A stretch of DNA of 64,000 nucleotides from Psychrobacter sp. NG254 (GTDB taxonomy: Bacteria; Pseudomonadota; Gammaproteobacteria; Pseudomonadales; Moraxellaceae). The stretch covers positions 372,001 through 436,000 of the forward strand of contig NZ_JADHDA010000002.1 of the NCBI RefSeq assembly GCF_015277735.1. The letters run 5' to 3'. The first letter of the stretch is position 1, and every line of letters starts with the position of its first letter. The position numbers and the translations under genes were made by a program. Of this stretch, positions 2,835 to 53,117 are shown piece after piece. The notes under the pieces are model-generated. The model made no database searches. It worked only from the letters and a program-made list of their open reading frames with translations, and was not told where the DNA came from.

Positions 2835-4982
2835 TTAAATCAGATCGCTGTGCGCTTGGATAGCAGTCAGCGCGATGGTATAGACGATATCATCGACCAA
2901 CGCACCACGTGATAAATCATTCACTGGTTTGTTCAGGCCTTGTAGCATTGGGCCGACACTGACGACGTTGGCACTACGCTGTACCGCTTTATACGTCGTG
3001 TTACCAGTATTGAGATCAGGGAAGATAAAGACATTGGCTTGACCAGCGACAGGCGAATCAGGCGCTTTTTGCTTACCGACGCTCATGACCGATGCCGCAT
3101 CATACTGTAGTGGGCCATCGACTTTGAGGTCTGGTGCACGCTCACGAACGATTTGGGTTGCACGGGCGACTTTTTCGACATCTGCGCCAGTCCCTGATGA
3201 GCCAGTAGAGTAGCTGATCATCGCGACTTTTGGATCGATACCGAAGGCCGCCGCAGACTGAGCTGATTGAATGGCAATCTCAGCCAGCTCTTCAGCGTTA
3301 GGATCAGGGTTGATGGCGCAGTCACCATAGACCACCACTTGCTCAGGCAACAGCATAAAGAATACTGACGACACGAGCGAGTATTGCGGTGCGGTCTTAA
3401 TCAACTGAAATGCTGGGCGTACGGTATTGGCAGTCGTATGAATCGCACCTGAGACCAGACCATCGACTTCATCCATCTGTAGCATGATGGTGCCGAGGTA
3501 TACAGTGTCTTTTAGATATTCAGCGGCGACATCTTCATTGGTTTTACCCTTGCGGCGCTCAACGACTGCTTTGATATATTTACTCATATCTAGACTGTCA
3601 GGGTCGATGATTTCTAACCCTTCAGGCAACGTCAAATCACGGTTTTTAGCGACTTGTTCAACATCACTACGCTTAGCAAGTAATACGCAATTGGCAATAC
3701 CGCGGCTTTGACAGATACAAGCCGCTTCCACGGTACGTGGCTCAGCGCCTTCTGGCAGTACGATGCGTTTTTTGGCTTGCTGTGATTTTTTGACTAACTG
3801 ATGGCGGAATGCTGACGGCGACAAACGTGGCTCGTGATTGCGGCTGAAGTATTCTTTAATCCAGCTCAGATCCAAATGCGCGGCCACATAGCGAGCCACT
3901 TCTTCCGCTCGTTCGGTGTCGTCATTTGGAATCTCAGAGCTCATGTGCATTAGGCTTTGTACGGTCTCGTAGCTGTCGCTTTCGACACTCATGACAGGGA
4001 TGCCCGTTTTGAGCGCTGATTGCCACAGCTCAGCGACCGTTGCACTTGGCATAATACCGCCAGTCAATACCAAACCTGCTAGCGGAATTCCATTGATACA
4101 GGCCAAGCCAGCAGCGAGTAATAAGTCGTCACGATCCCCCGGTACCACCATCAACGTACCGCGCTTAAAGACTTCATTAACACGTGCTACTGAACGGGCA
4201 GTTAGGCTGATACGATTGATACGACGTGTCTTTGCTTCACCAACATTGAGCCATGTCGCGTCCAGCTCGGTCGCGATATCCCACGTGCGCGGTACTGATA
4301 ACGAGTCACTAAAGGGCACCACACCGATCAGGCGAAATGCTTCGGTATTAAATGAAGGAGATAAGCGCTGAACTGCCTGCATAAAGTTCTGATCTAAGCT
4401 GACAACCGCTTCACCAGGGGCAACTGGTTGGTTTTCAAAGGTGTTGGGCACGTCTTGTACGCGCATCAATATCACGCCGAGCGTACGTGCATCAATGACG
4501 CCGCCGAACTCACGTGCATGGACATCGAGCTTATCTGCTAAATAGGCAGGCTGATTGATATCAGCGGTACTGACAAATATAATCTTGGCATCTAGCGCAT
4601 GGGCAAGCGCGCGGTTGATTTGTGAGGCATAAGAGGTTTCAGTAGTCGGCACGAGACCTTCGCAGATGATGACCTCATGACCCTCATCGATCGTATGATA
4701 ATTGGCGATCACTTCTTCCATCAAGTCGTCAAGATTGCCATCGCCCAGCATGCGTTCGACATGCTGGCGGCTGATAGATTTGGGCGGCTTGAGACCAAAC
4801 GCATGCATGGTGAGCGCATTTGAGCTGTCCAAGCTGTGCTGCTTATCGAGTGTATCATCTTGCAAAAACGGCTTCATAAAGCCGGCTTTTATACCGTTAT
4901 AATCAAACGCACGAATCAGACCGAGCGCCGCTGACGTCACACCAATACCGCGGCTGATGGGAACAAGTAAAATGGTTTGCAT
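2835..4982 (-). CDS. pta: Phosphate acetyltransferase (long form)
   Basis: Converts acetyl-CoA and phosphate to acetyl-phosphate, the partner step of acetate kinase. At 715 residues it is the long enterobacterial type: residues about 1-230 are a P-loop dethiobiotin-synthetase-like region (opening MQTILLVPISRGIGVTS), then the DRTGG domain (VPGDRDDLLLAA, LTGGIMP), then the catalytic PTA_PTB domain from about residue 395 (RIVLPEGAEPRTVEA, VDGLVSGAIHTTANTVRPAFQ, SYSTGSSGTG, FPDLNTGNTTYKAVQRSA). An AGGA site six bases before the ATG supports the start. It is 132 bases downstream of ackA on the same strand, giving the usual ackA-pta operon, and is closed by a hairpin terminator. Confidence 0.97.
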   Translation of the reverse strand: MQTILLVPISRGIGVTSAALGLIRAFDYNGIKAGFMKPFLQDDTLDKQHSLDSSNALTMHAFGLKPPKSISRQHVERMLGDGNLDDLMEEVIANYHTIDEGHEVIICEGLVPTTETSYASQINRALAHALDAKIIFVSTADINQPAYLADKLDVHAREFGGVIDARTLGVILMRVQDVPNTFENQPVAPGEAVVSLDQNFMQAVQRLSPSFNTEAFRLIGVVPFSDSLSVPRTWDIATELDATWLNVGEAKTRRINRISLTARSVARVNEVFKRGTLMVVPGDRDDLLLAAGLACINGIPLAGLVLTGGIMPSATVAELWQSALKTGIPVMSVESDSYETVQSLMHMSSEIPNDDTERAEEVARYVAAHLDLSWIKEYFSRNHEPRLSPSAFRHQLVKKSQQAKKRIVLPEGAEPRTVEAACICQSRGIANCVLLAKRSDVEQVAKNRDLTLPEGLEIIDPDSLDMSKYIKAVVERRKGKTNEDVAAEYLKDTVYLGTIMLQMDEVDGLVSGAIHTTANTVRPAFQLIKTAPQYSLVSSVFFMLLPEQVVVYGDCAINPDPNAEELAEIAIQSAQSAAAFGIDPKVAMISYSTGSSGTGADVEKVARATQIVRERAPDLKVDGPLQYDAASVMSVGKQKAPDSPVAGQANVFIFPDLNTGNTTYKAVQRSANVVSVGPMLQGLNKPVNDLSRGALVDDIVYTIALTAIQAHSDLI

Positions 4983-5114
4983 AAGGTTTCCTACGATTTA
5001 TTTTGTTTTAGACTTCGATTTATTATTGGCAGCATAAAGAATACCGAGCGTTTTATTCTATGTTTTTTACAACCATCAAGAGTGATAAACGCTGAGTATA
5101 ATATCTAAATAAGC

Positions 5115-6347
5115 TTATACCAAATTCAAGGCCTGACGCGTCTCTTGCGCGATACGGTATTCTTCATCCGTTGGTACGACCCACAGCTCAATACTACTGT
5201 CATCGGTATGGAAGCTGCCTTCTTTGCCACGGGACAAATCCGCGTTTTTGTCCACATCTATTTTGATACCAAAATGACGCATCACTGCTAAGATGCTGGC
5301 ACGTGTGGTCACTGAGTTTTCACCGATACCACCAGTGAAAACAATGCCGGTAAATTCAGGCAATGCACAGCTTAGGCTGGCGAGGTATTTACCCGCGCGA
5401 TAGCAGAACATATCAATCGCCAGCTGCGCGTCTTTATGACCTTCACTAGCGGCTTGCTCAATGGTACGCAGATCGTTAGACAAGCCTGATATGCCTAGCA
5501 GTCCACTGTCACTATTGAGCATTTTGTCCGTCTCTTCTAGGCTGATACCGAGATGACGCTTTAGATGCATGTGCAAGCTAGGGTCGACATCACCACTACG
5601 CGTACCCATCATTAGACCTTCGAGTGGGGTCAGACCCATACTGGTATCGAGGCTCTTGCCATCGTACACGGCAGCCACCGAGCAGCCATTACCGAGATGT
5701 GCTGTTAGCCAACCATGTGGCCCTTTGGCCTCCGTGATTTGGCTCGTACGCTCTGAGACATAGGCATGAGAGGTACCATGAAAACCATAACGACGGATTT
5801 TGTGTTCTTCGTATAGGTACTTTGGCAGGGCATAGCGAAACGCAACGGGCGGCATCGTTTGGTGAAAGGCGGTATCAAACACCACGACTTGCGGCATATC
5901 AGGATAAATGGCTTGCACCGCTTCGATACCCAACGCATTGGCAGGGTTGTGTAGTGGCGCCAGTATCTTGAGGCGTTTGACTTCTGCGAGTGCATGATCG
6001 TCAACTCGTACCGCCTCAGAGTATTCACGGCCACCATGTACCACGCGATGACCGACCGCGATGAAATGATACTGCTCTAACAGCTCAAGGATTTTTTGTA
6101 GCGCCAGCTTATGGCGACCACCAGGGATAGATATTTCAAGCTTCTCACCATTTAAGGTCGTGTGTTTGATACGGGCAGTATCGAGGCCTAAGTTTTCGGC
6201 AAGACCGGTGATACGAGTAGAGTTGTCATCACTAATCAACGCGTATTTGATGGAAGACGAGCCGCAGTTTAGCACTAAAGTCGGACTGGTCAGGGTTGAT
6301 GTTTCACTGTTCTTATCATCAAAAGTGGTGCTTAGGGTGGCGCTCAT
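5115..6347 (-). CDS. ackA: Acetate kinase
   Basis: Interconverts acetyl-phosphate plus ADP with acetate plus ATP. The 410-residue length fits the family. Visible signatures are LVLNCGSSSIKYAL near the N-terminus, VGHRVVHGG, DTAFHQTMPP, RRYGFHGTSHAYVS, HLGNGCSVAA, the TPLEGLMMGTRSGDVDP block, and FTGGIGENS near the C-terminus. About 16 residues precede the catalytic start, more than in E. coli. AAGGA six bases before the ATG supports the start. First gene of the ackA-pta unit; the 656-base gap upstream holds its promoter region and is shared with the divergent lptM. Confidence 0.97.
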   Translation of the reverse strand: MSATLSTTFDDKNSETSTLTSPTLVLNCGSSSIKYALISDDNSTRITGLAENLGLDTARIKHTTLNGEKLEISIPGGRHKLALQKILELLEQYHFIAVGHRVVHGGREYSEAVRVDDHALAEVKRLKILAPLHNPANALGIEAVQAIYPDMPQVVVFDTAFHQTMPPVAFRYALPKYLYEEHKIRRYGFHGTSHAYVSERTSQITEAKGPHGWLTAHLGNGCSVAAVYDGKSLDTSMGLTPLEGLMMGTRSGDVDPSLHMHLKRHLGISLEETDKMLNSDSGLLGISGLSNDLRTIEQAASEGHKDAQLAIDMFCYRAGKYLASLSCALPEFTGIVFTGGIGENSVTTRASILAVMRHFGIKIDVDKNADLSRGKEGSFHTDDSSIELWVVPTDEEYRIAQETRQALNLV

Positions 6348-40946: not shown

Positions 40947-42497
40947 ATGATGCAGTTGCCGTACAGTTTTGCAAAACGCCATCAGATTTTGGTCATACTT
41001 GCGATTGATCCTGAGTTGCCGCCGACATTGGTGCTGACCAAAGCCACGCCACTGCCAGCGATTAATGAAGCGGTGAGGTTTTTGCAGCAGCAAGGCATTC
41101 GTAGCATACCCACTTATGACAGTGTCAGCTCAGACGATTTTGAAAAACGCATGAATGCTGCTTATGCGGGCAACACAGGCGAGTCGCAGCACATCGCAGC
41201 TGGGCTAGAGGATCATCCTGATCTTGACAGTCTCGCCGATAGCGTCCCTGAAACTGAAGACTTAATGGATCAGCAAGACGATGCGCCCATTATTCGTCTG
41301 ATCAATGCATTACTGTCTGAAGCCATTCGTTTGAGTGCCTCAGATATCCATATTGAGACCTTTGAAAAACGCTTGGTTGTGCGTTTTCGTGTCGATGGAG
41401 AGCTAAAAGAAATTATCACACCCAAACGCCAATTGGCACCATTATTGGTGTCACGTATTAAAGTAATGGCGAAATTAGACATCGCCGAAAAACGGGTGCC
41501 ACAAGATGGTCGTATCAGTCTCAGACTGGCAGGCCGTGAAGTGGATGTACGTGTATCGACCTTACCATCGAGCTTTGGTGAGCGTGTGGTGATGCGTCTG
41601 TTAGACAAGCAGGCAGGTCGCCTCAATATGACGTATTTGGGGCTGTCTGATAATGACTATACTGAGCTAAAACGTCTGATTCATCGTCCGCATGGCATTA
41701 TCTTGGTGACAGGGCCGACTGGCTCGGGTAAAACCACCACACTATACTCAGCGCTGACTGATCTGAACGATCAAACCCGTAATATCTTGACTGCTGAAGA
41801 TCCGATTGAGTTTCAGCTCGATGGTATCGGACAAACGCAGGTCAATAATAAAGTCGATATGACCTTTGCCAAGAGTCTGCGCGCGATGTTGCGTCAAGAT
41901 CCAGACGTGGTGATGGTTGGTGAAATTCGTGATTTAGAAACAGCAGAGATTGCAGTACAGGCCTCTTTGACAGGGCATTTGGTGTTATCAACACTTCATA
42001 CCAATACAGCGATTGGTGCGGTCACTCGCTTACAGGACATGGGTGTTGAGCCCTTTTTATTATCATCCTCGCTCATCGGCGTAGTGGCACAGCGCTTGGT
42101 GCGTACGTTATGCTCACATTGTCATGGTTGGCAGGATGCGGACAGCGAGCAAGCCAAGCTATTTACCGAAATCGGTATCGAGCCAGTCTCGGGAAGTGCT
42201 GAAAATATAATAAATGACGCGATTCGTCTGCCTAAACCTATCGGCTGCGATAAGTGCAATCAGTCAGGGTTTAAAGGGCGTACGGCAATATATGAAGTTG
42301 TGCCAGTCGATGACACCTTGCGCCGTATGATTCACAGTAATACCGCTGAGTACGAGCTAGAAGAGTATGCACGTCAGCAGACACCGTCAATTCGTGCAGA
42401 TGGCCTACGTAAAGTGATAGAAGGACGAACCACGTTAGAAGAGGTGCTGCGAGTCACCAAAGAAAGCGCACTCACGGGTGATGCAATACTAATCTAA
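40947..42497 (+). CDS. gspE: Type II secretion ATPase GspE
   Basis: Cytoplasmic ATPase that powers pseudopilus assembly in type II secretion. N-terminal GspE_N-type region, then the ATPase with Walker A GPTGSGKTTT (about residue 256), Asp box in LTAEDPIEFQL, Walker B VMVGEIRDLETAEIA and the His box LSTLHTNTA. Zinc cysteines are in CSHCHGW and CDKCNQSG, near residues 390 and 434. The DIHIE segment fits GspE/PilB; the four-Cys pattern, presence of gspF and gspG in the same window, and length near 500 favour GspE. AGG nine bases before the ATG. It stands alone, with no gsp neighbour. Confidence 0.9.
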   Translation: MMQLPYSFAKRHQILVILAIDPELPPTLVLTKATPLPAINEAVRFLQQQGIRSIPTYDSVSSDDFEKRMNAAYAGNTGESQHIAAGLEDHPDLDSLADSVPETEDLMDQQDDAPIIRLINALLSEAIRLSASDIHIETFEKRLVVRFRVDGELKEIITPKRQLAPLLVSRIKVMAKLDIAEKRVPQDGRISLRLAGREVDVRVSTLPSSFGERVVMRLLDKQAGRLNMTYLGLSDNDYTELKRLIHRPHGIILVTGPTGSGKTTTLYSALTDLNDQTRNILTAEDPIEFQLDGIGQTQVNNKVDMTFAKSLRAMLRQDPDVVMVGEIRDLETAEIAVQASLTGHLVLSTLHTNTAIGAVTRLQDMGVEPFLLSSSLIGVVAQRLVRTLCSHCHGWQDADSEQAKLFTEIGIEPVSGSAENIINDAIRLPKPIGCDKCNQSGFKGRTAIYEVVPVDDTLRRMIHSNTAEYELEEYARQQTPSIRADGLRKVIEGRTTLEEVLRVTKESALTGDAILI

Positions 42498-43137: not shown

Positions 43138-43920
43138 TTATTCGGCTGTGCTCTTAGCATTGTCTATATTCGTATCATCTGCATTAGTATCTGCATGGGT
43201 ATCGTTATCTGAATTGGCATCGTTTGCGCCAGTTTCCTCTGCACCAGTACGGTCATCTACAAGGTTACTATCTACTGGTTTGTCGTTGGCTTTGCCTTGG
43301 CGACGGGCTTCTAGCTCAGACTTTGGAATCCAAGCCCATGTCATCTCGACCACGATGGGGTCGCGGTCACTGTCCGACTCACGATCTTCAATGATACACG
43401 GGATAACCATCTCACCTTTTGGGGTGTTTAAGATATGCAGGCGCTGCTCATCAGATAGGCTAGATACGGCGGCAATCTGGCCTTTTTTGATTGGACGATA
43501 AAAATTAACGGAGTAAGACTTGATCAGCAGAATACGATCAGAGGGCAAGTTTAGACCTAAAATAAAGCCTGTTGCCGTTTCTGCTAGCAAGGTGATGGCG
43601 ACAGCATGGATAGAGCCAATGTGGTTTTGGACAGCTTTATTATTGTTTAAACTGACGACCACTTGATTGGGTTCGACCGTTTCATAGTAGATACCTGTGG
43701 TGCCTACATAAGGTACGACTTTGCCAAAGGCTTTGGACAAAATACTGGAGCGCGCACCGGCAGGTAAGTATTTGGTCACTGATAGCAGTTTGGTAAATTG
43801 ATTGCTGATTGGTTTTAGAGTACTACTGGGTTTGTCGGTAGGTGCTCTTGTACTGTCAGATGCTTTGGCTGATCGTTTTTTGGTCAGCTTGGCGGGCAGT
43901 TTTTTTAATAGTCCTGACAT
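43138..43920 (-). CDS. DUF4442 hot-dog fold protein, possible thioesterase
   Basis: A 260-residue protein. After a basic, low-complexity N-terminus (about 40 residues), residues 45-205 carry a hot-dog-like pattern: VPYVGTTGIYYETVEPNQV, NHIGSIHAVAITLLAETATG, NFYRPIKKGQIAA, typical of the DUF4442 group related to PaaI-type thioesterases. The last 55 residues are an acidic tail made of repeated Asn, Asp, Ala and Thr. AAGGA seven bases before ATG 43920 decides the start over 44049. No thioesterase substrate can be told. Divergent from the McrBC pair. Confidence 0.8.
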   Translation of the reverse strand: MSGLLKKLPAKLTKKRSAKASDSTRAPTDKPSSTLKPISNQFTKLLSVTKYLPAGARSSILSKAFGKVVPYVGTTGIYYETVEPNQVVVSLNNNKAVQNHIGSIHAVAITLLAETATGFILGLNLPSDRILLIKSYSVNFYRPIKKGQIAAVSSLSDEQRLHILNTPKGEMVIPCIIEDRESDSDRDPIVVEMTWAWIPKSELEARRQGKANDKPVDSNLVDDRTGAEETGANDANSDNDTHADTNADDTNIDNAKSTAE

Positions 43921-44167
43921 ACAAAATTCCTTAACATAAATGTGTTGAATGGCATTTTTAGCATGATTTTTATAGTGGTTGCTATAACCGCTATATAAGT
44001 TGAGCCTGAGAGTAGTGATGACCAAAGCCATGATGACTACTATCATCACTATGGTACATCAACCATGATTCTGCGACTATTATTAGCATGAACTGCTGCG
44101 ATTACAAAACAGCCGCGTTATCATAGTATGATGACACGCCTTAGCACGACCTATCTTATGAATCTTA

Positions 44168-45685
44168 ATGCTGGATGACGCTATGCCTGATACGACGACC
44201 CACAAGCCTGTTAATATGATTTATACCGGCGTCGCGGGTACGGGTAAAACCTATCGATTGCTACAAATCGCTAAGCAATATACCGAATTCCTTCCTACTG
44301 CCAATGAAGAAGATCTGCTTGGACAGCTGCTGCAGGACTTAAGCTGGCGAGAGGTGGTCTGTCTAATATTCTTAGACTTTAAACGAAATAAGAAAGACTT
44401 GGTCAAAGTCCCTGAATTGGTCAATCATAACTTCTTTACGGCCAAAGCGACACAGAATGCCCGAGAGAAAAATTTAAGCAATACAGCTTGGTCGGTACTG
44501 CAAATGCACAGTCCAGCCAACTCAGGTACCGTCAGTTATAAAAACAGAGCCAGCCAAGCTTATTTTGATAAAGACAATAGCGGCGGGTGGTACTTGTTAC
44601 CTGAGAGTATGGAACTGCTGTCAGGATTGTCACAGCAGTTGGCAGAGTTTCAGCAGGCGCAGCATGAGTGCAAAACTGATCAAAATCAGAATATTGCACA
44701 GCAGCGTTTTAGCATGGTGAGCTTCCATCAGGCCTATGGTTATGAGGAATTTGTCGAAGGCATTCGCCCTGTGATGAGCGGCACTACTCAGACCAACCAT
44801 AGTCATTCTAACCACGCTCAAATGAGTTACGCTGTGCAAGATGGCGCATTTTTGAAGCTATGTCAGCGCGCCGCACGCGACCCTCAGCATCGCTATGCCA
44901 TGCTGATTGATGAGATCAACCGCGCCAATGTGTCACGAGTATTTGGTGAATTACTCAGTTTGATTGAGTCAGATAAGCGCGCGGGCATGCCAAACGCGAT
45001 GACGATCCATCTGGCCTATTCTGGACGCGCTTTTAGTGTCCCTGACAATGTCGATATCTATGCGACGATGAACACTCAAGACCACTCTCTAGCACCATTA
45101 GATATGGCGCTACGTCGACGTTTTCGATTCATTGATTGTCCACCGCAGCCTGAACTATTACCCGTTATTGGCAGCGCTATGGGCTTACCAAAACAGCTAG
45201 GCACTAATAATGTCGGCACTGATGATTTTAGTACTAATGACAGTGACACAGTAGACTTGGGCAAACTGCTAATAGGATTGAACACGCGTATCGTACAGAC
45301 GCTAGGGTCAGAGGCGCAATTGGGTCACGCCTTTTTGCTGTCAGTGGATAATCTAGAGCAATTGCAAACAAGTCTGATCGAGCAAATCATTCCACAGTTG
45401 GCGCAAGCCGCGGGTAATCAAGTGAGCGTCCTGCAGTATATATTTAGAGATGAGTCGCAGCCGACAAGCTTGCAGTTTATTCAGGACAGTCAAATGATGA
45501 CCAATCAAGACACACATGGCCCAACTAGCAACCATCATAATCCGAATGCGCATCATCAAATGTTTGCAGAGCCGGGCTTTTTGATGGGTCAATCGGCCAA
45601 TATGGCTGGCTATAACGTGAATGCAGACCTAGTAGATAAGACAGGCGCGTTTAGTACTGCCGCTGTCTATCAGCGTTTGTATTAG
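44168..45685 (+). CDS. mcrB: McrB-like AAA+ GTPase subunit, no N-terminal DNA-binding domain
   Basis: The motor subunit of an McrBC-type modification-dependent restriction system. Walker A GVAGTGKT is at residues 21-28, so nothing precedes the GTPase. Next come about 155 residues unlike E. coli McrB, with LSWREVVCLIF, then ELVNHNFFTAKATQNARE and SNTAWSVLQMHSP, a pattern that looks like a winged helix insert. The core resumes at MVSFHQAYGYEEFVEGIRP (from residue 183), Walker B IDEINRANVSRVFGEL (248), and the GTP signature here MNTQD (301-305), then the arginine-finger region ALRRRFRFI. In E. coli, Walker A and the FHQ segment are only about 27 residues apart. mcrC follows four bases later. Start could be ATG 44168 or 44183. 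Confidence 0.9.
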   Translation: MLDDAMPDTTTHKPVNMIYTGVAGTGKTYRLLQIAKQYTEFLPTANEEDLLGQLLQDLSWREVVCLIFLDFKRNKKDLVKVPELVNHNFFTAKATQNAREKNLSNTAWSVLQMHSPANSGTVSYKNRASQAYFDKDNSGGWYLLPESMELLSGLSQQLAEFQQAQHECKTDQNQNIAQQRFSMVSFHQAYGYEEFVEGIRPVMSGTTQTNHSHSNHAQMSYAVQDGAFLKLCQRAARDPQHRYAMLIDEINRANVSRVFGELLSLIESDKRAGMPNAMTIHLAYSGRAFSVPDNVDIYATMNTQDHSLAPLDMALRRRFRFIDCPPQPELLPVIGSAMGLPKQLGTNNVGTDDFSTNDSDTVDLGKLLIGLNTRIVQTLGSEAQLGHAFLLSVDNLEQLQTSLIEQIIPQLAQAAGNQVSVLQYIFRDESQPTSLQFIQDSQMMTNQDTHGPTSNHHNPNAHHQMFAEPGFLMGQSANMAGYNVNADLVDKTGAFSTAAVYQRLY

Positions 45686-45689
45686 CAGG

Positions 45690-47243
45690 GTGACTGAGGT
45701 GATAAGCAATCAACGACAACAGTACGACATTAACTATTCACACACCCGTGTAGATAGTCGGTTTATGCATCCATCTAGTCAGCGTGTTATCACTGTGTTT
45801 GAGCATCAGCGTCTCACGGTCTATGATTTTTTGCAGGTGTCAGATTTTCATTGGCTAATGGCAAAAGAGTTTGATGTATTTACGATCAAGCGTCGACAAG
45901 GACAGTGGCAACTCAAAGTCGGACACTATATTGGGATTATTTTATTGCCCAGTGGCATAACACTTGAGATATTGCCCAAGCTGAACCAGTCTACTCAAAA
46001 TGACGATATCGTACAGACTCGTCACTGGGTACAGAGCATGCTATCTGACTTGACCCGCCTTGATACCCATAAAAACGGTAGACTACCAAGCACAAAAAAC
46101 CTCAATCAATTCAGTCATCAAACCGTGCCACTGCCGATAGAAGCACTACCATTGTCAGATTGGTTAGTCGCACAGTTTTTGCAGCGAGTGGCAGGCTATC
46201 AGCCAACCAAACAGTATCAGACACAGACCAATAATCACTCCTCATTACAAGGCCGTTTACTCATCAAAGAGCAGCTGCGCCACAACGCTATGCAGCCGCA
46301 CAAGTTTGTCTGCGAGAGCAGTGTGCTGAGTCCAGATATATTGGCCAATCGATTAATCAAAAGTGCGTTGATACACCTAACACCTTTATTGCCTCCACCT
46401 ATGTTTTCAACATATTTGCAACTGTGGCAACGACTACCTACGCTGAATCAATGTGAGATGCTGCAACTAAACTCGACATACCATCAAGCAAAGCGACAAT
46501 TGAGCATTCAGCCGTTGCAACGAAAACAACTACAAGCCGCTCAAGAGTTATTGAATTTGGCATATTGGTTATTGCAGCAATCAAATACGGCGACAGGCAA
46601 TGGGATTGACCCTGTTCAGCAAAGCCTATCTAAGCCGCGCTTGTGTTTATTGATTGATATGAATCAAGCGTTTGAGCAATGGGCAAGCTTGTGTATCACC
46701 ACGATGTTTCAGCAGGTCAGTGATACTTATCGCCCTCTTTATCAAACCAAAAGCGTGTGGCTAAACGATGATACAGGACAAGCATGCTTATCTATACGGC
46801 CAGATTTGCTAATATATAATGTTGACTATGATGATAGTGCTCACAATCAAAGCAATAATAGAGAGCCTGTCGAAACAAACGCTGGTGTAAATACTGAAGC
46901 AAACATAAGAGCGAAAAGAGTCAGGCGCTACAGTCATGTCATTGATATGAAATGGAAGCATTTACCGAGTGCTGGGTCTATCAGTGCAAACGACGCGTAT
47001 CAGTTGACCAGCTATGCACAAGCGTATCGAGCAGGGCAGGTATGGCTCGTCTATCCAGTGCTAGGAGTTGAGCGACAACCCGTTGCACTGAAGCAGCAAA
47101 TTCATCATGATGATGATAATGACGCTGATAGCGAAACTAATAGAGATGATTCAAGCCCTGCACATTTATGGTTGATGCCGTTTAATGTGCTGACAGGTAC
47201 GATCAACGGTGAATGGATATCACAGTTAAGCAAATCACAATGA
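45690..47243 (+). CDS. mcrC: McrC-like nuclease subunit
   Basis: The partner of McrB that stimulates its GTPase and cuts DNA. The N-terminal part has LQVSDFHWLMAKEFDVFTIKR-type sequence and YIGIILLPSGITLEILPKL, a beta domain typical of McrC. The C-terminal PD-(D/E)xK nuclease is visible as IRPDLLIYN (about residue 371) and VIDMKWKHL with D419 and K421, preceded by LLIDMNQAFEQWASLC, the McrC bridge segment. An acidic loop lies between the two nuclease motifs. Start is GTG 45690, four bases after the mcrB stop, so the two are coupled. Length 517 is above E. coli McrC (348). Confidence 0.9.
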   Translation: MTEVISNQRQQYDINYSHTRVDSRFMHPSSQRVITVFEHQRLTVYDFLQVSDFHWLMAKEFDVFTIKRRQGQWQLKVGHYIGIILLPSGITLEILPKLNQSTQNDDIVQTRHWVQSMLSDLTRLDTHKNGRLPSTKNLNQFSHQTVPLPIEALPLSDWLVAQFLQRVAGYQPTKQYQTQTNNHSSLQGRLLIKEQLRHNAMQPHKFVCESSVLSPDILANRLIKSALIHLTPLLPPPMFSTYLQLWQRLPTLNQCEMLQLNSTYHQAKRQLSIQPLQRKQLQAAQELLNLAYWLLQQSNTATGNGIDPVQQSLSKPRLCLLIDMNQAFEQWASLCITTMFQQVSDTYRPLYQTKSVWLNDDTGQACLSIRPDLLIYNVDYDDSAHNQSNNREPVETNAGVNTEANIRAKRVRRYSHVIDMKWKHLPSAGSISANDAYQLTSYAQAYRAGQVWLVYPVLGVERQPVALKQQIHHDDDNDADSETNRDDSSPAHLWLMPFNVLTGTINGEWISQLSKSQ

Positions 47244-47474: not shown

Positions 47475-47551
<77 letters not shown>

Positions 47552-47560
47552 TCTATTTTA

Positions 47561-47583
47561 AGAGCCTTACAGGCTTTTTTTTA
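47561..47583 (+). terminator. Short hairpin and T run after tRNA-Pro
   Basis: AGCCT-TAC-AGGCT followed by seven to eight T, ten bases after tRNA-Pro. The stem is short, so it may end only part of the transcripts or serve as a processing signal before tRNA-Arg. Confidence 0.5.
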
Positions 47584-47658
47584 TGTATAATGGTTTAGTT
47601 TTTGATATAGTGAACATTATATTATAAACTGGATTTGATATATAAAAGTCCTCTAAGA

Positions 47659-47735
47659 GCGCCTGTAGCTCAGCTGGATAGAGCATCTCCCTTCTAAGGA
47701 GGTGGCCGCAGGTTCGAATCCTGCCAGGCGCACCA
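47659..47735 (+). tRNA. tRNA-Arg (anticodon TCT)
   Basis: A 77-base cloverleaf: acceptor arms GCGCCTG and CAGGCGC, anticodon loop CTTCTAA (anticodon TCT), T loop GGTTCGAATCC, encoded CCA. It reads AGA/AGG codons. Confidence 0.97.
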
Positions 47736-47775
47736 TTTAGCCTGAAGATCTTGCCTTTTTATTGGCAATAGTTAT

Positions 47776-47852
47776 GGCGGTTGTAGCTCAGTTGGTAGAG
47801 CCCCGGGTTGTGATCTCGGTTGTCGTGGGTTCGAGTCCCATCAGTCGCCCCA
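47776..47852 (+). tRNA. tRNA-His (anticodon GTG)
   Basis: A cloverleaf with anticodon loop TTGTGAT (GTG), acceptor arms GCGGTTG and CAGTCGC, an encoded extra G at -1 opposite C73 as required for histidine tRNA, and encoded CCA. Confidence 0.96.
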
Positions 47853-49751: not shown

Positions 49752-50816
49752 ATGACTGAACCGACCGCAAAGCCAAGTACAGAAGCCAATCGCCATCAAG
49801 GCACTACTGCAACTGCTAAAAAAGAAAACAAGCCTAATAAGCAAACTATCAGAGATGGTCAAAGCAGGAACGAAGCTGCTCAGATAGAAGGTGCAGTAGA
49901 AATGCCTGACAAAGCGGCCTTGCTGACATTGTTTACATTATCAGACACTAAGGAAGTCAGCGCCGCAGAAGTCGCTTCTCCTGAACGAGCCGATGCGAAC
50001 GCCGTAACAGTAATTCCTGCTGCTAGTGAAGAGAGTGTAGCCGCGCAGCGTGTGGCGCTTTATCGTACTCAGCATGAGCGCACTCGACTGCTATATATGG
50101 CATCTGCCAATACGCGTCCCACGTATCTTGTGCAAACGCTCAAGTCGCAGTTTGTAGAGTATCAGCAGTATCTGCTGGCTCAGCAGCTTGATAAGCGTGG
50201 TCTTATGGACACCGAGGCGCTTGATAGGCTTTGGCAGCAGCTGCACGTCATCGACGATATTATCGATGATATTGTGCGTCATATGCCTGCTCAGCAGCCT
50301 GCAGGTTGGCAGTTGACCACTCAGGACGGACAAAACCCATTATGCTTTGCCACTGTCGGTAAACTAAAGCATGGTAAACCAATTCAGGATCAAGGCAGTC
50401 TAAATAGTTATGTACTCGGTCACTTTGGTGTAAGCAGCTTTACCTATGATCGAGGCTATTATATCGGTCATGTGATTGGGTATTTGTTCAGCTGTTATTT
50501 TTGCGCGCACTTGTCGATCAGCTATGGTGTCAGGGCGCTTGGTCAGCAGGTAATCACTGATTATGACTATGCCAGTCTTGAGACACCGCATATGGTTAGG
50601 CTGCTACAAGGGCTAGATGGTTATTGCAAAAAACGCATTTATCAGTTGGCTGTGATCTGTGCGCGTCTTAGTATGTTTGCCAGTGACAAACGTATCGAGA
50701 GAATGCTGATTGCTGAGGTCAATGATTTTGATAAAAAAATCCAGCAGCAGCATTTAGATGTATTACTGCTGCAGGGCTTGATGCCTGACAGTAATGACTC
50801 AACACCGTTTTTTTAA
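49752..50816 (+). CDS. Hypothetical protein, 354 residues, not recognised
   Basis: I do not recognise this protein. Residues 1 to about 90 are polar and probably disordered (Lys, Asn, Ala, Glu, Thr). The rest looks ordered and mostly helical: QRVALYRTQHERTRLLYMAS, LVQTLKSQFVEYQQYLLAQQL, an acidic VIDDIIDDIVRH helix, a middle part with FGVSSFTYDRGYYIGHVIGYL and CYFCAH, and a helical C-terminus. No signal peptide, no Walker or metal motif, and no clear membrane span is seen. Codon use is like the neighbours. It starts at ATG 49752 with no strong ribosome binding site and lies 168 bases before gspF on the same strand, so cotranscription with gspF is possible. Confidence 0.7.
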   Translation: MTEPTAKPSTEANRHQGTTATAKKENKPNKQTIRDGQSRNEAAQIEGAVEMPDKAALLTLFTLSDTKEVSAAEVASPERADANAVTVIPAASEESVAAQRVALYRTQHERTRLLYMASANTRPTYLVQTLKSQFVEYQQYLLAQQLDKRGLMDTEALDRLWQQLHVIDDIIDDIVRHMPAQQPAGWQLTTQDGQNPLCFATVGKLKHGKPIQDQGSLNSYVLGHFGVSSFTYDRGYYIGHVIGYLFSCYFCAHLSISYGVRALGQQVITDYDYASLETPHMVRLLQGLDGYCKKRIYQLAVICARLSMFASDKRIERMLIAEVNDFDKKIQQQHLDVLLLQGLMPDSNDSTPFF

Positions 50817-50983: not shown

Positions 50984-52186
50984 ATGCCCGCTTATCATTT
51001 TAAAGCGCTTGATGACCATGGTGGTGTCCAAAAAGGCTTGCTAGAAGGCGACTCTGCGCGGCAAGTCCGTCAGCAGTTGCGTGATAAACACTGGACGCCG
51101 GTTGAGGTCAGTGCGGTCAATGACAGACAGAGCCAAAGCAAAAACCGCTACAAAAAACCTTCTGCCTATGAGCTTGCACTGCTAACACGTCAGTTATCTG
51201 TACTGCTCGCCGCAGGCATTCCGCTCGAAGAAACGTTGGCCGCTGTCGCCAAACAATCACCAAAGACTCATATCAAATCTCTGATGCTGGCAGTACGCTC
51301 GCATGTCCTAGAGGGTTTGAGCTTAGCGCGTGCCCTACAACAAGCCGCCAGTTTTCCGCCGTTGTATATCGCCACGATTGCCGCAGGCGAAAAATCTGGT
51401 CACTTAGACCTCATTCTCAATCAGCTAGCAGACTACACCGAAAACCGCTTTGCCCTCCAGAAGAAAGTCCAAGGCGCTATGGTTTATCCGATTGTGCTGA
51501 TGGTCATGGCCATTGGCGTGATTATGGGACTGATGAGCTTTGTGGTGCCCAAAATTGTCAAAGTATTCGAGCAATCTGAGCAAGCGCTACCGCTGATTAC
51601 CCAAATCGTTCTGGCTTTATCGAATATCATCACCCAGTGGTGGTGGTTGATACTATTAGTATTGGCAAGTACCGCATTTTTATTCTACCGTTTTGCCCAA
51701 ACGCAAGCTGGTAAGTTGACGATAGACAGTACTGTATTGAGATTGCCTATATTGGCCAGACTGTCCAAAGGACTCAATGCGGCGCGTTTTGCTAGTACGC
51801 TGGCCATATTGGTACGCTCAGGCGTGCCGTTAATTGAGGCATTACATATTGGGGCTGCGGTAACGACCAATCTACACATCCAAAAAACTATTATCACTGC
51901 GGCCGATAGAGTCACAGAAGGCTCTAGTTTGTCTAGCCAGTTAGAGAAATCTACTTACTTCCCACCGATGATGGTACAGATGATAAAAAGTGGAGAAAAC
52001 TCAGGCGAGCTTGAAAACATGCTAAGCCGTGCCGCCAATATGCAAGAGGCTGAGGCGACCAACTTTATCAGTACCTTACTGTCATTGCTTGAGCCGTTGA
52101 TGCTAGTGTTGATGGGTGTGGTGGTAATGATTATTGTCATGGCGGTGATGCTGCCAATCGTTAATATGAATGATTTGGCAGGTTAA
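50984..52186 (+). CDS. gspF: Type II secretion inner membrane protein GspF
   Basis: A polytopic protein of 400 residues. Two repeated GspF domains: first with ELALLTRQLSVLLAAGIPLEETL, second with ARFASTLAILVRSGVPLIEAL, each followed by membrane segments; the AGEKSG and SGENSGELENML signatures are present. The opening AYHFKALDDHGGVQKGLLEGD fits GspF/PilC. The GspF reading is favoured by gspG 370 bases downstream. AGGA about ten bases before ATG 50984. Confidence 0.92.
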   Translation: MPAYHFKALDDHGGVQKGLLEGDSARQVRQQLRDKHWTPVEVSAVNDRQSQSKNRYKKPSAYELALLTRQLSVLLAAGIPLEETLAAVAKQSPKTHIKSLMLAVRSHVLEGLSLARALQQAASFPPLYIATIAAGEKSGHLDLILNQLADYTENRFALQKKVQGAMVYPIVLMVMAIGVIMGLMSFVVPKIVKVFEQSEQALPLITQIVLALSNIITQWWWLILLVLASTAFLFYRFAQTQAGKLTIDSTVLRLPILARLSKGLNAARFASTLAILVRSGVPLIEALHIGAAVTTNLHIQKTIITAADRVTEGSSLSSQLEKSTYFPPMMVQMIKSGENSGELENMLSRAANMQEAEATNFISTLLSLLEPLMLVLMGVVVMIIVMAVMLPIVNMNDLAG

Positions 52187-52556
52187 ATTAAAGTCAATGC
52201 CCTAGCTTCCTGTCTTCAAAACCTCTCTCTAATTCTCCTTTATTCTATTCATATCAGCTATCTTGCTTGCTAAACCATGGATTAGCTTTCTTAAGGTTTG
52301 CTTACTGTTGTATATTGTTGAACGAACGCTATTTTTGCTATGGCAAACACAAGCGCCGCGCTATAGTAAGCATGGATCAATAGTCATACATTTGGTGTCA
52401 GCTAACAGTTCACTTTGGCTAAAATAGCAAACTCAAACTGGGCGCAGCGCTGGATAAAAATAAAACCATGGTTTATAGTGACAACAGTTTCAGAGCTCAT
52501 TGATATATCATTGATGAGAGCCACGATAGAACGCCACTTTTACTATTTACATAACT
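52187..52556. other. Intergenic region between gspF and gspG
   Basis: 370 bases on the way from gspF to gspG. No gene or strong hairpin is seen. Its length argues that gspG has its own promoter. Confidence 0.3.
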
Positions 52557-53117
52557 GTGATGACCAAAGCGATGACTATGACTGACAAATTCCAAGTAAA
52601 TATGACGCCAAAAAGTGCTATTCAGAATACGCAATCCCATTCAAATATTGTAAATGACCCTAAGGTTGCTTCTTCAGCCATGCAGCGCAGTGTGGCAATG
52701 AAATCTGGTCAAGCAGGATTTACTCTTATTGAGATTATGGTCGTTATTGTTATCCTAGCCATTCTTGCTGGACTGGTGGTACCAAAAGTAGTCGGACAAA
52801 GCGACAAAGCGCGCGTCAAAACCACTGAGACAGCGCTTGCCACCGTATCCAATGCGCTAGATATGTATAAAGTTGACAACTCACGTTATCCAACCACGGC
52901 TCAAGGTTTAGAAGCGTTGACCACACCGCCTGCTGATGCAAAAAATTATCCCGAAGGTGGTTATATCAAAGGTGGCTACCCAACTGATGGCTGGGAAAAC
53001 GAGATGCAGTATGTCGCGCCAGGCAGTGAAGGTCGTCCTTATGATTTATTTTCGTTAGGGGCAGATGGACAACAAGGCGGTGAAGGTCAGGACACAGACC
53101 TTTATGCCCAGCTATAA
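52557..53117 (+). CDS. gspG: Type II secretion major pseudopilin GspG
   Basis: The main subunit of the type II pseudopilus. The prepilin site lies at G54-F55 with FTLIEIMVVIVILAILAGLV following, Glu at +5. The mature part has GspG features: DNSRYPTTAQGLEAL, GGYPTDGWENEMQYV, and the calcium-site end DLFSLGADGQQGGEG. From the first start (GTG 52557 or ATG 52560) the leader would be about 54 residues, far longer than the usual 6-12. ATG 52698 gives a seven-residue leader (MKSGQAG) and ATG 52680 one of 13; the true start may be there. A strong terminator follows and no gspH-N genes are present. Confidence 0.93.
   Translation: MMTKAMTMTDKFQVNMTPKSAIQNTQSHSNIVNDPKVASSAMQRSVAMKSGQAGFTLIEIMVVIVILAILAGLVVPKVVGQSDKARVKTTETALATVSNALDMYKVDNSRYPTTAQGLEALTTPPADAKNYPEGGYIKGGYPTDGWENEMQYVAPGSEGRPYDLFSLGADGQQGGEGQDTDLYAQL

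What the first reader, a model, noticed from the sequence alone, without database searches (positions are those of the whole stretch)
44168..47243. McrBC pair whose McrB has no N-terminal domain but a large insert inside the GTPase
Walker A lies at residues 21-28, so the modified-base reader of E. coli McrB is missing. Instead about 155 residues are inserted between Walker A and the FHQ segment (only about 27 apart in E. coli). The insert (LSWREVVCLIF ... SNTAWSVLQMH) looks like a winged helix and may supply DNA recognition, or recognition may have moved to the longer McrC. The GTP signature NTQD and the McrC nuclease residues are intact, so it should be active with a new target. The pair lies beside a tRNA cluster.
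Basis: partly seen in the sequence, partly recalled or inferred. Interest (0 to 1): 0.6.

Follow-up and report, generated by a model that had tools for sequence, protein, structure and literature searches.

The report
Genus-wide fixed McrBC nuclease pair
A DNA-cutting protein pair of a kind that bacteria usually gain and lose as an optional virus defence turns out to sit at one fixed chromosomal place in practically every species of Psychrobacter examined, which suggests that here it has become a permanent part of the cell.

Summary
ORF 44168-45685 is a McrB-family GTPase whose Walker A starts at residue 21, with 157 residues between Walker A and FHQ; ORF 45690-47243 is its McrC. The known catalytic residues are kept. 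The insert (about 130 net residues) is a conserved domain whose predicted helix/strand order fits a winged helix; between close species it is the slowest of four McrB regions compared (dN/dS 0.058).

"The insert replaces the lost reader" is not supported. The same insert occurs in nine relatives that keep 244-447 residues before Walker A, one with a clear EVE domain. McrC's extra length is mostly low-confidence loops; no extra folded domain is seen.

The pair is core in Psychrobacter: 104 of 105 species genomes (97 of 97 near-complete), all 104 at the same site. The single miss also lacks the neighbouring gene. Divergence tracks the flanking genes. Elsewhere in the class and phylum the insert is rare (2 of 320, 2 of 347 genomes); in E. 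coli it is accessory (981 of 5,426).

Best explanation: a working GTP-driven McrBC nuclease, vertically fixed, most likely a permanent type IV-like barrier to foreign DNA. Domestication to a housekeeping role is not excluded. Target unknown.

The parts
44168..45685 (+). McrB-family AAA+ GTPase, 505 aa, no N-terminal domain
   Evidence: AAA_5, E 1e-11; TgMcrB 1.7e-40, EcMcrB 4e-30; fold
44228..44251 (+). Walker A, residues 21-28 GVAGTGKT
   Evidence: K27 and T28 invariant in 75 of 75
44300..44662 (+). insert, residues 45-165; conserved core about 58-146; predicted winged-helix-like
   Evidence: dN/dS 0.058, lowest of the four McrB regions compared; no Pfam family matched it beyond chance-level hits
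44723..44731 (+). FHQ, residues 186-188, start of the McrB segment after the insert
   Evidence: F186 and H187 invariant in A1
44909..44914 (+). Walker B D248 E249
   Evidence: invariant in 75 of 75
45071..45082 (+). signature NTQD, residues 302-305 (NxxD)
   Evidence: N302 and D305 invariant in 75 of 75
45113..45121 (+). arginine-finger region R316-R318
   Evidence: invariant in 75 of 75
45690..47243 (+). McrC-family nuclease, 517 aa, GTG start
   Evidence: PF10117, E 2.6e-36; TgMcrC 5.8e-26 by profile; fold
46803..46952 (+). PD-(D/E)xK site: D372 ... D419-M-K421
   Evidence: D372 and K421 75 of 75; D419 74 of 75, E in one
47475..47852 (+). tRNA-Pro, tRNA-Arg, tRNA-His that bound the locus downstream
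   Evidence: same trio in 37 of 37 named loci
43138..44049 (-). divergent DUF4442 (hotdog thioesterase-like) gene that bounds the locus upstream
   Evidence: beside McrB in 104 of 104 genomes that have the orthologue

Best explanation
It is a complete McrBC-type GTP-driven translocase-nuclease. The headless McrB forms an AAA+ ring that is activated by McrC and carries a winged-helix-like domain inserted between Walker A and FHQ; McrC supplies the PD-(D/E)xK nuclease. It was present in the common ancestor of Psychrobacter and has since been inherited vertically at one chromosomal site (between a DUF4442 gene and tRNA Pro-Arg-His) without a demonstrated loss in the species sampled. It most likely works as a permanent, type IV-like barrier: the ring is loaded on foreign, probably modified DNA, with the insert as a conserved DNA-contacting part shared by the whole subfamily, translocates with GTP, and McrC cuts. 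Shown here: gene identity, intact catalytic residues, the insert as a constrained and predicted-folded module, fixation and vertical inheritance. Inferred: the GTPase/nuclease activity, DNA contact by the insert, the role in defence, and any target.
For: Family and fold. Catalytic residues. Insert constrained and predicted folded. Orthologue in 104 of 105 genus genomes, McrC in 104 of 105, 97 of 97 near-complete for each; same neighbour and orientation in 104 of 104. Vertical: McrB distances correlate with four flanking genes, r 0.87-0.95, none of 999 permutations as high. Purifying selection: dN/dS 0.134 McrB, 0.170 McrC. No separate reader gene seen in the unit: a divergent gene upstream and tRNAs downstream.
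Against: Fixation in a whole genus is unusual for a defence gene. In the same genus other McrB-like genes are patchy: 38 of 105 genomes list more than one match, and in at least two of these (G087, G100) the extra match is a piece of the same gene. HsdR homologues, pooled over all sites, are in 87 of 105. Cytosine-5 methyltransferases are as common in the genus (45 of 105) as in the rest of the family sample (95 of 194; p 0.33), so there is no sign that the pair keeps m5C out. Curated NCBIfam McrB and McrC models match below their cut-offs (114 of 637 and 34.5 of 338 bits). Tracking the flanks would also follow from replacement together with the flanks. No activity data exist here.
Confidence: 0.55

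Rival explanations
1. Domesticated McrBC: the pair has a housekeeping job on the cell's own DNA (clearing wrongly modified or stalled DNA, segregation, repair), and defence is secondary or lost. This would explain fixation at one site.
For: 104 of 105 presence and 104 of 104 synteny; vertical inheritance; coexistence with C5 methyltransferases (45 genomes) and D12/Dam-like ones (22 genomes) without loss. Precedent: PcdA of S. aureus, a McrB family member turned cell-division protein (PMC10602043, passages read).
Against: Unlike PcdA, all catalytic residues and the nuclease partner are kept. Both proteins evolve faster than the flanking genes (lowest pairwise identity 0.38 for McrB and 0.24 for McrC against 0.82 for GspE and 0.48-0.54 for the three other flanks; higher dN/dS), as defence genes tend to.
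Confidence: 0.28
2. One reading: the insert is a winged-helix reader that replaced the lost N-terminal domain and gives the pair a new modified-DNA target. (Overlaps with the best explanation, so the odds do not add up to one.)
For: Winged-helix-like order and high local confidence; strong constraint on the insert. Winged helices read N6-methyladenine in other type IV enzymes (PMC11037411, passages read). The CoCoNuT census found GTPase-domain inserts frequent and judged them likely specificity domains (PMC11090510 section 6).
Against: The insert is present in McrBs that keep long N-terminal regions, one with an EVE domain (L137), so it is not simply a substitute for the lost domain. A reader facing changing phages would be expected to vary; between close species this is the slowest of the four regions compared.
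Confidence: 0.2
3. Accessory defence system recently spread through the genus on an island beside tRNA genes.
For: Type IV systems are often mobile; tRNA genes are common insertion sites (general knowledge).
Against: Same site in 104 of 104 genomes; divergence tracks the flanks; G+C like the neighbours; the six flanking ORFs scanned show no integrase or transposase family (one of them has no family at all).
Confidence: 0.02

Closest known systems
Insert-bearing McrBC of E. coli (L133 from plasmid record CP054241; relatives on chromosomes, e.g. ATCC 25922)
   Same: Same insert between Walker A and FHQ (154 residues from Walker A start to FHQ start), McrC next to it; 40% identity over 85% of McrB
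   Different: 244 residues before Walker A are kept; accessory, in 981 of 5,426 E. coli genomes at 80% or more cover
T. gammatolerans and E. coli K-12 McrBC (6ut5, 6hz4)
   Same: AAA+ core, NxxD signature, Walker motifs, arginines, PD-(D/E)xK McrC
   Different: No insert; [quoted passage not shown] Signature here is NTQD-H rather than the NTAD-R of E. coli (E. coli letters from the alignment)
PcdA (S. aureus McrB family, PMC10602043, passages read)
   Same: McrB-family protein kept in a lineage, an example of co-option
   Different: PcdA has degenerate motifs, EVE domains and no McrC; here all motifs and McrC are intact
BsuMI YdiS/YdjA (9a5m)
   Same: Fold match of both proteins; YdiS is also short before its AAA+ domain (chain 24-337 of 343 aligned)
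   Different: Part of a restriction-modification system with its own methylase (recalled); no methylase among the flanking ORFs scanned here
CoCoNuTs (PMC11090510, sections 6 and 14 and passages read)
   Same: McrBC relatives; insertions in the GTPase domain are described
   Different: CoCoNuTs have NxD and coiled coils; this one is NxxD; the type I-A insert lies between Walker B and NxD, not after Walker A

Membership tests
McrB GTPase family | AAA+ domain with Walker A, Walker B and NxxD signature, arginines | tested here: met
   (Z 20.8, rmsd 4.2, 288 aligned to 6ut5_C). The curated NCBIfam equivalog for E. coli-type McrB is below its cut-off
McrB GTPase family | N-terminal modified-base reader domain | tested here: not met
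   Walker A at residue 21, no upstream open frame. Common but apparently not required: YdiS is also short there
McrC family | McrC N-terminal/DUF2357 region plus PD-(D/E)xK nuclease, adjacent to McrB | tested here: met
   (PF10117); the NCBIfam equivalog is below its cut-off
Type IV (modification-dependent) restriction system | cuts modified DNA, spares unmodified | not testable with these tools
   no assay; the C5-methylase census gives no sign of m5C exclusion
Type IV (modification-dependent) restriction system | no cognate methyltransferase gene beside it | tested here: met
   six flanking ORFs between 40947 and 52186 scanned, none matched a methyltransferase family; one of them (49752-50816) has no family at all
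HARE-HTH (PF05066) for the insert | sequence-profile similarity | tested here: not met
   no PF05066 hit at E up to 10 (HMMER's filters drop most weak hits); hhalign probability 0.4-0.5%, while 30 column-shuffled controls reached 0.7%
Winged-helix fold for the insert | three-helix HTH followed by a beta hairpin | tested here: inconclusive
   order of predicted elements fits, with one extra helix; the insert was not folded or searched alone
CoCoNuT | NxD signature | tested here: not met
   NxxD in 75 of 75
CoCoNuT | long coiled coils | not tested
   no coiled-coil prediction was run

The most novel reading that the evidence does not exclude
A full McrBC nuclease has been domesticated in Psychrobacter into a core genome-maintenance machine: a GTP-driven motor that uses its inserted winged-helix-like domain, instead of a modified-base reader, to load on the cell's own aberrant or stalled DNA, with phage defence only a side effect.
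Probability: 0.22. Interest if true: 0.78.

Novelty: new variant of a known kind. Interest (0 to 1): 0.5.

Why it matters
Restriction systems are usually treated as optional and mobile. A McrBC pair that none of 97 near-complete genomes of a 105-species genus lacks, always at one site, and whose slowest-evolving region between close species is an unnamed domain inside the motor, makes a clear question testable: is it a permanent immune gene or a domesticated one? Four literature searches that named Psychrobacter (7 of 7, 15 of 362, 10 of 47 and 15 of 16 papers listed) showed no paper whose title or opening of the abstract describes it.

Tried and rejected
Insert as replacement reader: rejected as stated, because insert-bearing McrBs with N-terminal regions exist. 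Insert as HARE-HTH: the register looked right by eye (W at helix 1, 'PEI' at helix 2), but profile comparison gave nothing above shuffled controls. A PDB profile search with the insert gave two hits at E 0.18 and 0.7, taken as chance. Whole-model fold search was filled by AAA+ chains, so the insert was barely tested there; a list without winged helices is no evidence against one. Recent island: rejected. McrC extra domain: no sign. m5C exclusion test: negative, and weak, since methylase target sites are unknown. D12/Dam-like methylases: matches in 22 of 105 genus genomes, 21 over the cut-off, all of which also have the McrBC match; this excludes no target. Insert conservation: over all 75 rows the insert is less conserved (0.64, core 0.68) than the AAA core (0.80), so 'slowest' holds only for close species pairs.

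Reading of internal stops: one search flagged a stop inside the match in six genomes (G072, G055, G054, G080, G096, G075). For the first five the fetched loci have one open frame of 475-497 aa, so the flagged stop lies outside that frame, at an end of the match. G075 is truly broken up in frame (the genome is rated 85% complete, so an assembly error is possible). The g9 genome G112 (L081) has a stop in McrB. G081 (77% complete) has only a weak match to another McrB, no McrC match and no DUF4442 neighbour.

Labels: in my scripts and notes the flanking genes are called pilB and PilC; one search shows that they are gspE and gspF.

Rows dropped: L104 (McrB and McrC identical to L034); L081 and L100 (broken McrB) from A1; L100 from A2; L113 has no McrC in reach. 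L100 and L104 were also left out. One search dropped L090, L094 and L112 (long local insertions) from the 28 prepared rows and added L133 and L134. One search used 51 of the rows. One search trimmed A5 to its core columns. Loci L045-L073 (29) were not used, since their flanks cut McrC short. One search's megablast sees only close relatives, so 981 is a lower bound for E. coli. Searches used E up to 1e-5 and scored at most 11-12 candidates a genome.
Full report
WHAT IS THERE. The window is part of a 3.33 Mb genome (G000, contig 7, 372001-436000). The genome is very probably Psychrobacter: 37 of the 38 related loci found in named genomes are Psychrobacter, at 61-75% identity over the whole or nearly whole McrB. 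ORF 44168-45685 (505 aa) matches AAA_5, and McrB of T. gammatolerans (1.7e-40) and E. coli (4e-30) among solved chains. ORF 45690-47243 (517 aa) matches the McrBC family PF10117; on its own it finds no solved chain, but as a profile it finds TgMcrC (5.8e-26) and EcMcrC (2.6e-9). NCBIfam's E. coli-type McrB and McrC models match below their cut-offs. PADLOC's best models for McrB are two 'Type II restriction enzyme' models (1.3e-12, 1.3e-9), with none for McrC.

THE INSERT. Walker A is at residues 21-28 and FHQ at 186-188. The spacing is 157 residues here and 148-191 in the 75 McrBs aligned, against about 25 in TgMcrB. The insert is not filler. In 27 diverse rows W, V, L, T-V, R, F-x-K and W are invariant. 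AF2, run on the window protein with 40 relatives, gives the model only moderate overall confidence (mean pLDDT 65, pTM 0.45), but the ten-residue blocks from 51 to 160 average 72-90, with a helix-helix-helix-helix-hairpin order, as in a winged helix with one extra helix. Between close species pairs the insert has the lowest dN/dS of the four McrB regions compared (0.058; AAA part 176-330 0.100; lid 0.217; tail 0.212; 128-130 pairs). By mean residue conservation over all 75 rows the insert (0.64, core 0.68) is below the AAA core (0.80) and similar to the lid (0.66), so its slowness holds for recent evolution, not for the deep family. In one search the insert alone gave only two chance-level Pfam hits (E 0.03 and 0.17), and it is not detectably HARE-HTH.

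IS IT A SUBSTITUTE READER? The same insert with the same spacing is found in nine relatives with Walker A at residues 245-448 of the open frame: L085, L086, L117, L118, L133 (E. coli), L134 (Acaryochloris), L137, L139, L140 (154-166 residues from Walker A start to FHQ start). Seven of the nine were scanned with Pfam: L137 has an EVE domain above the cut-off, L139 a weak one, and the other five have no convincing N-terminal family. So the insert coexists with N-terminal regions. The headless form is seen in Psychrobacter, in five g7 genomes and four g9 genomes of the same family, in one viral contig (L116) and perhaps in L136 (cut at its end). The window's McrC is 169 residues longer than EcMcrC (517 against 348), but its N-terminal region is shared with TgMcrC (profile match from the N-terminal part on; fold match), and most of the remaining extra length is in stretches with pLDDT under 50 (1-30, 125-150, 175-213, 300-316, 383-410, 478-488). 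I see no place to which a reader moved.

FIXATION. A search of the 105 genomes held for the genus (one per species) finds a P0001 match in 105 of 105, of which G081 is only a weak match to another McrB (4.4e-10), so the orthologue is in 104. McrC is in 104 of 105. Among near-complete genomes both are in 97 of 97. The DUF4442 neighbour is in 104 of 105, missing in the same G081. In 104 of 104 genomes it lies on the same contig, on the opposite strand, 161-1120 bases from the McrB match. The tRNA Pro-Arg-His trio follows in 37 of 37 named loci. In 29 further loci (L087-L115, among them the most divergent members and one duplicate, L104) it follows in 26; the other three are cut by contig ends, one of them after tRNA-Pro. 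Pairwise protein distances of McrB correlate with McrC (r 0.98), GspE (0.87), the 354-aa ORF (0.95), DUF4442 (0.93) and AraC (0.94), with none of 999 permutations as high, over 49-64 rows. Both genes evolve faster than their neighbours, yet under purifying selection (dN/dS 0.134 and 0.170, against 0.02-0.11 for four flanking genes on the same pairs). One genome of the 104 (G075, 85% complete) has a broken McrB.

CONTRAST. Outside the family the insert is rare: 2 of 320 other genomes sampled from the class and 2 of 347 genomes sampled from the phylum besides the two Psychrobacter that matched, at E up to 1e-5; the two samples overlap. In the rest of the family sample any McrB-like match is found in 51 of 194 genomes. 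In Psychrobacter itself, other McrB-like genes are patchy (38 of 105 list more than one match, at least two of these being pieces of the same gene), and HsdR homologues pooled over all sites are in 87 of 105. The E. coli relative is in 981 of 5,426 genomes. Two other genera of the family keep the pair at sites of their own: g9 in the 4 loci fetched, all with the same flanks, one with a stop in McrB; g7 with clearly shared flanks in L076, L078 and L079, partly shared in L077, not in L080. A sixth g7 genome (G155, named) is not among the matches. In the McrB tree (51 rows) the g7 proteins join the larger Psychrobacter group with support below the usual mark (89/84), so Psychrobacter is not one clade there and a transfer out of Psychrobacter is possible but not shown.

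HOW IT MOST LIKELY WORKS. From the family (PMC7680126, passages): the McrB ring hydrolyses GTP, McrC stimulates it, the complex translocates on DNA, and McrC cuts. The residue types named there for catalysis in McrB, and the nuclease residues of McrC, are kept here by alignment. What brings the ring to its DNA is unknown. The insert is the best candidate for a DNA contact, since it is the only extra folded part that I see and is shared by the subfamily, but this is inference. Cytosine-5 methylase genes are as frequent in the genus as in the rest of the family sample (45 of 105 against 95 of 194, p 0.33), and D12/Dam-like hits occur in 22 of 105, each in a genome that keeps the McrBC. So a broad m5C or GATC-6mA target is not favoured, though methylase contexts are unknown. 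The two live readings are a permanent barrier (0.55) and domestication (0.28). PcdA shows that McrB can be domesticated, but PcdA lost motifs and McrC, which this pair has not. A fixed methylation-dependent enzyme is not without parallel: PcaRCII was said to be possibly part of the P. carotovorum core genome (PMC8989522, passages).

NOVELTY. GTPase inserts in McrB are in print (PMC11090510, section 6), so the architecture alone is a variant of a known kind. The genus-wide fixation together with a defined, unnamed insert domain is what I would call new. Four searches naming Psychrobacter with McrBC, core genome, defence or restriction terms listed no paper that describes it in its title or the opening of its abstract (listings only, three of them not showing all papers found). 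One genome per species was examined, so within-species loss is untested.

Noticed in passing
window 40947-42497 and 50984-53117: Type II secretion genes gspE and gspF (a GspG-like ORF after them by eye) are split by an 8.5 kb segment that holds the McrBC pair, the tRNAs and other genes. In the 37 named loci gspE is within reach in 33 and gspF in 30.
   Followed up: partly
window 49752-50816: 354-aa ORF with no Pfam or NCBIfam match, found beside the locus in 34 of 37 named Psychrobacter loci.
   Followed up: no
G000:C13:456923-457474: The same genome has a second McrB-like gene (809 aa open frame, 42% identity over part) and two HsdR-like matches.
   Followed up: no
L081 (G112) about 4901-5989: In one genome of genus g9 the McrB of this subfamily has an in-frame stop while McrC has an open frame, an apparent recent break or sequencing error.
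   Followed up: partly
E. coli, e.g. NZ_CP009072 2547016-2551623: In the ten best-scoring E. coli records listed, an insertion sequence lies within the matched McrBC stretch (IS3 family, mostly ISEc52, in nine; IS1 in one); the other records were not looked at.
   Followed up: no
McrB residue 306: The residue after the NxxD signature, Arg in the published MNxxDR consensus, is His in 57 of 75 members and Arg in only 11.
   Followed up: no
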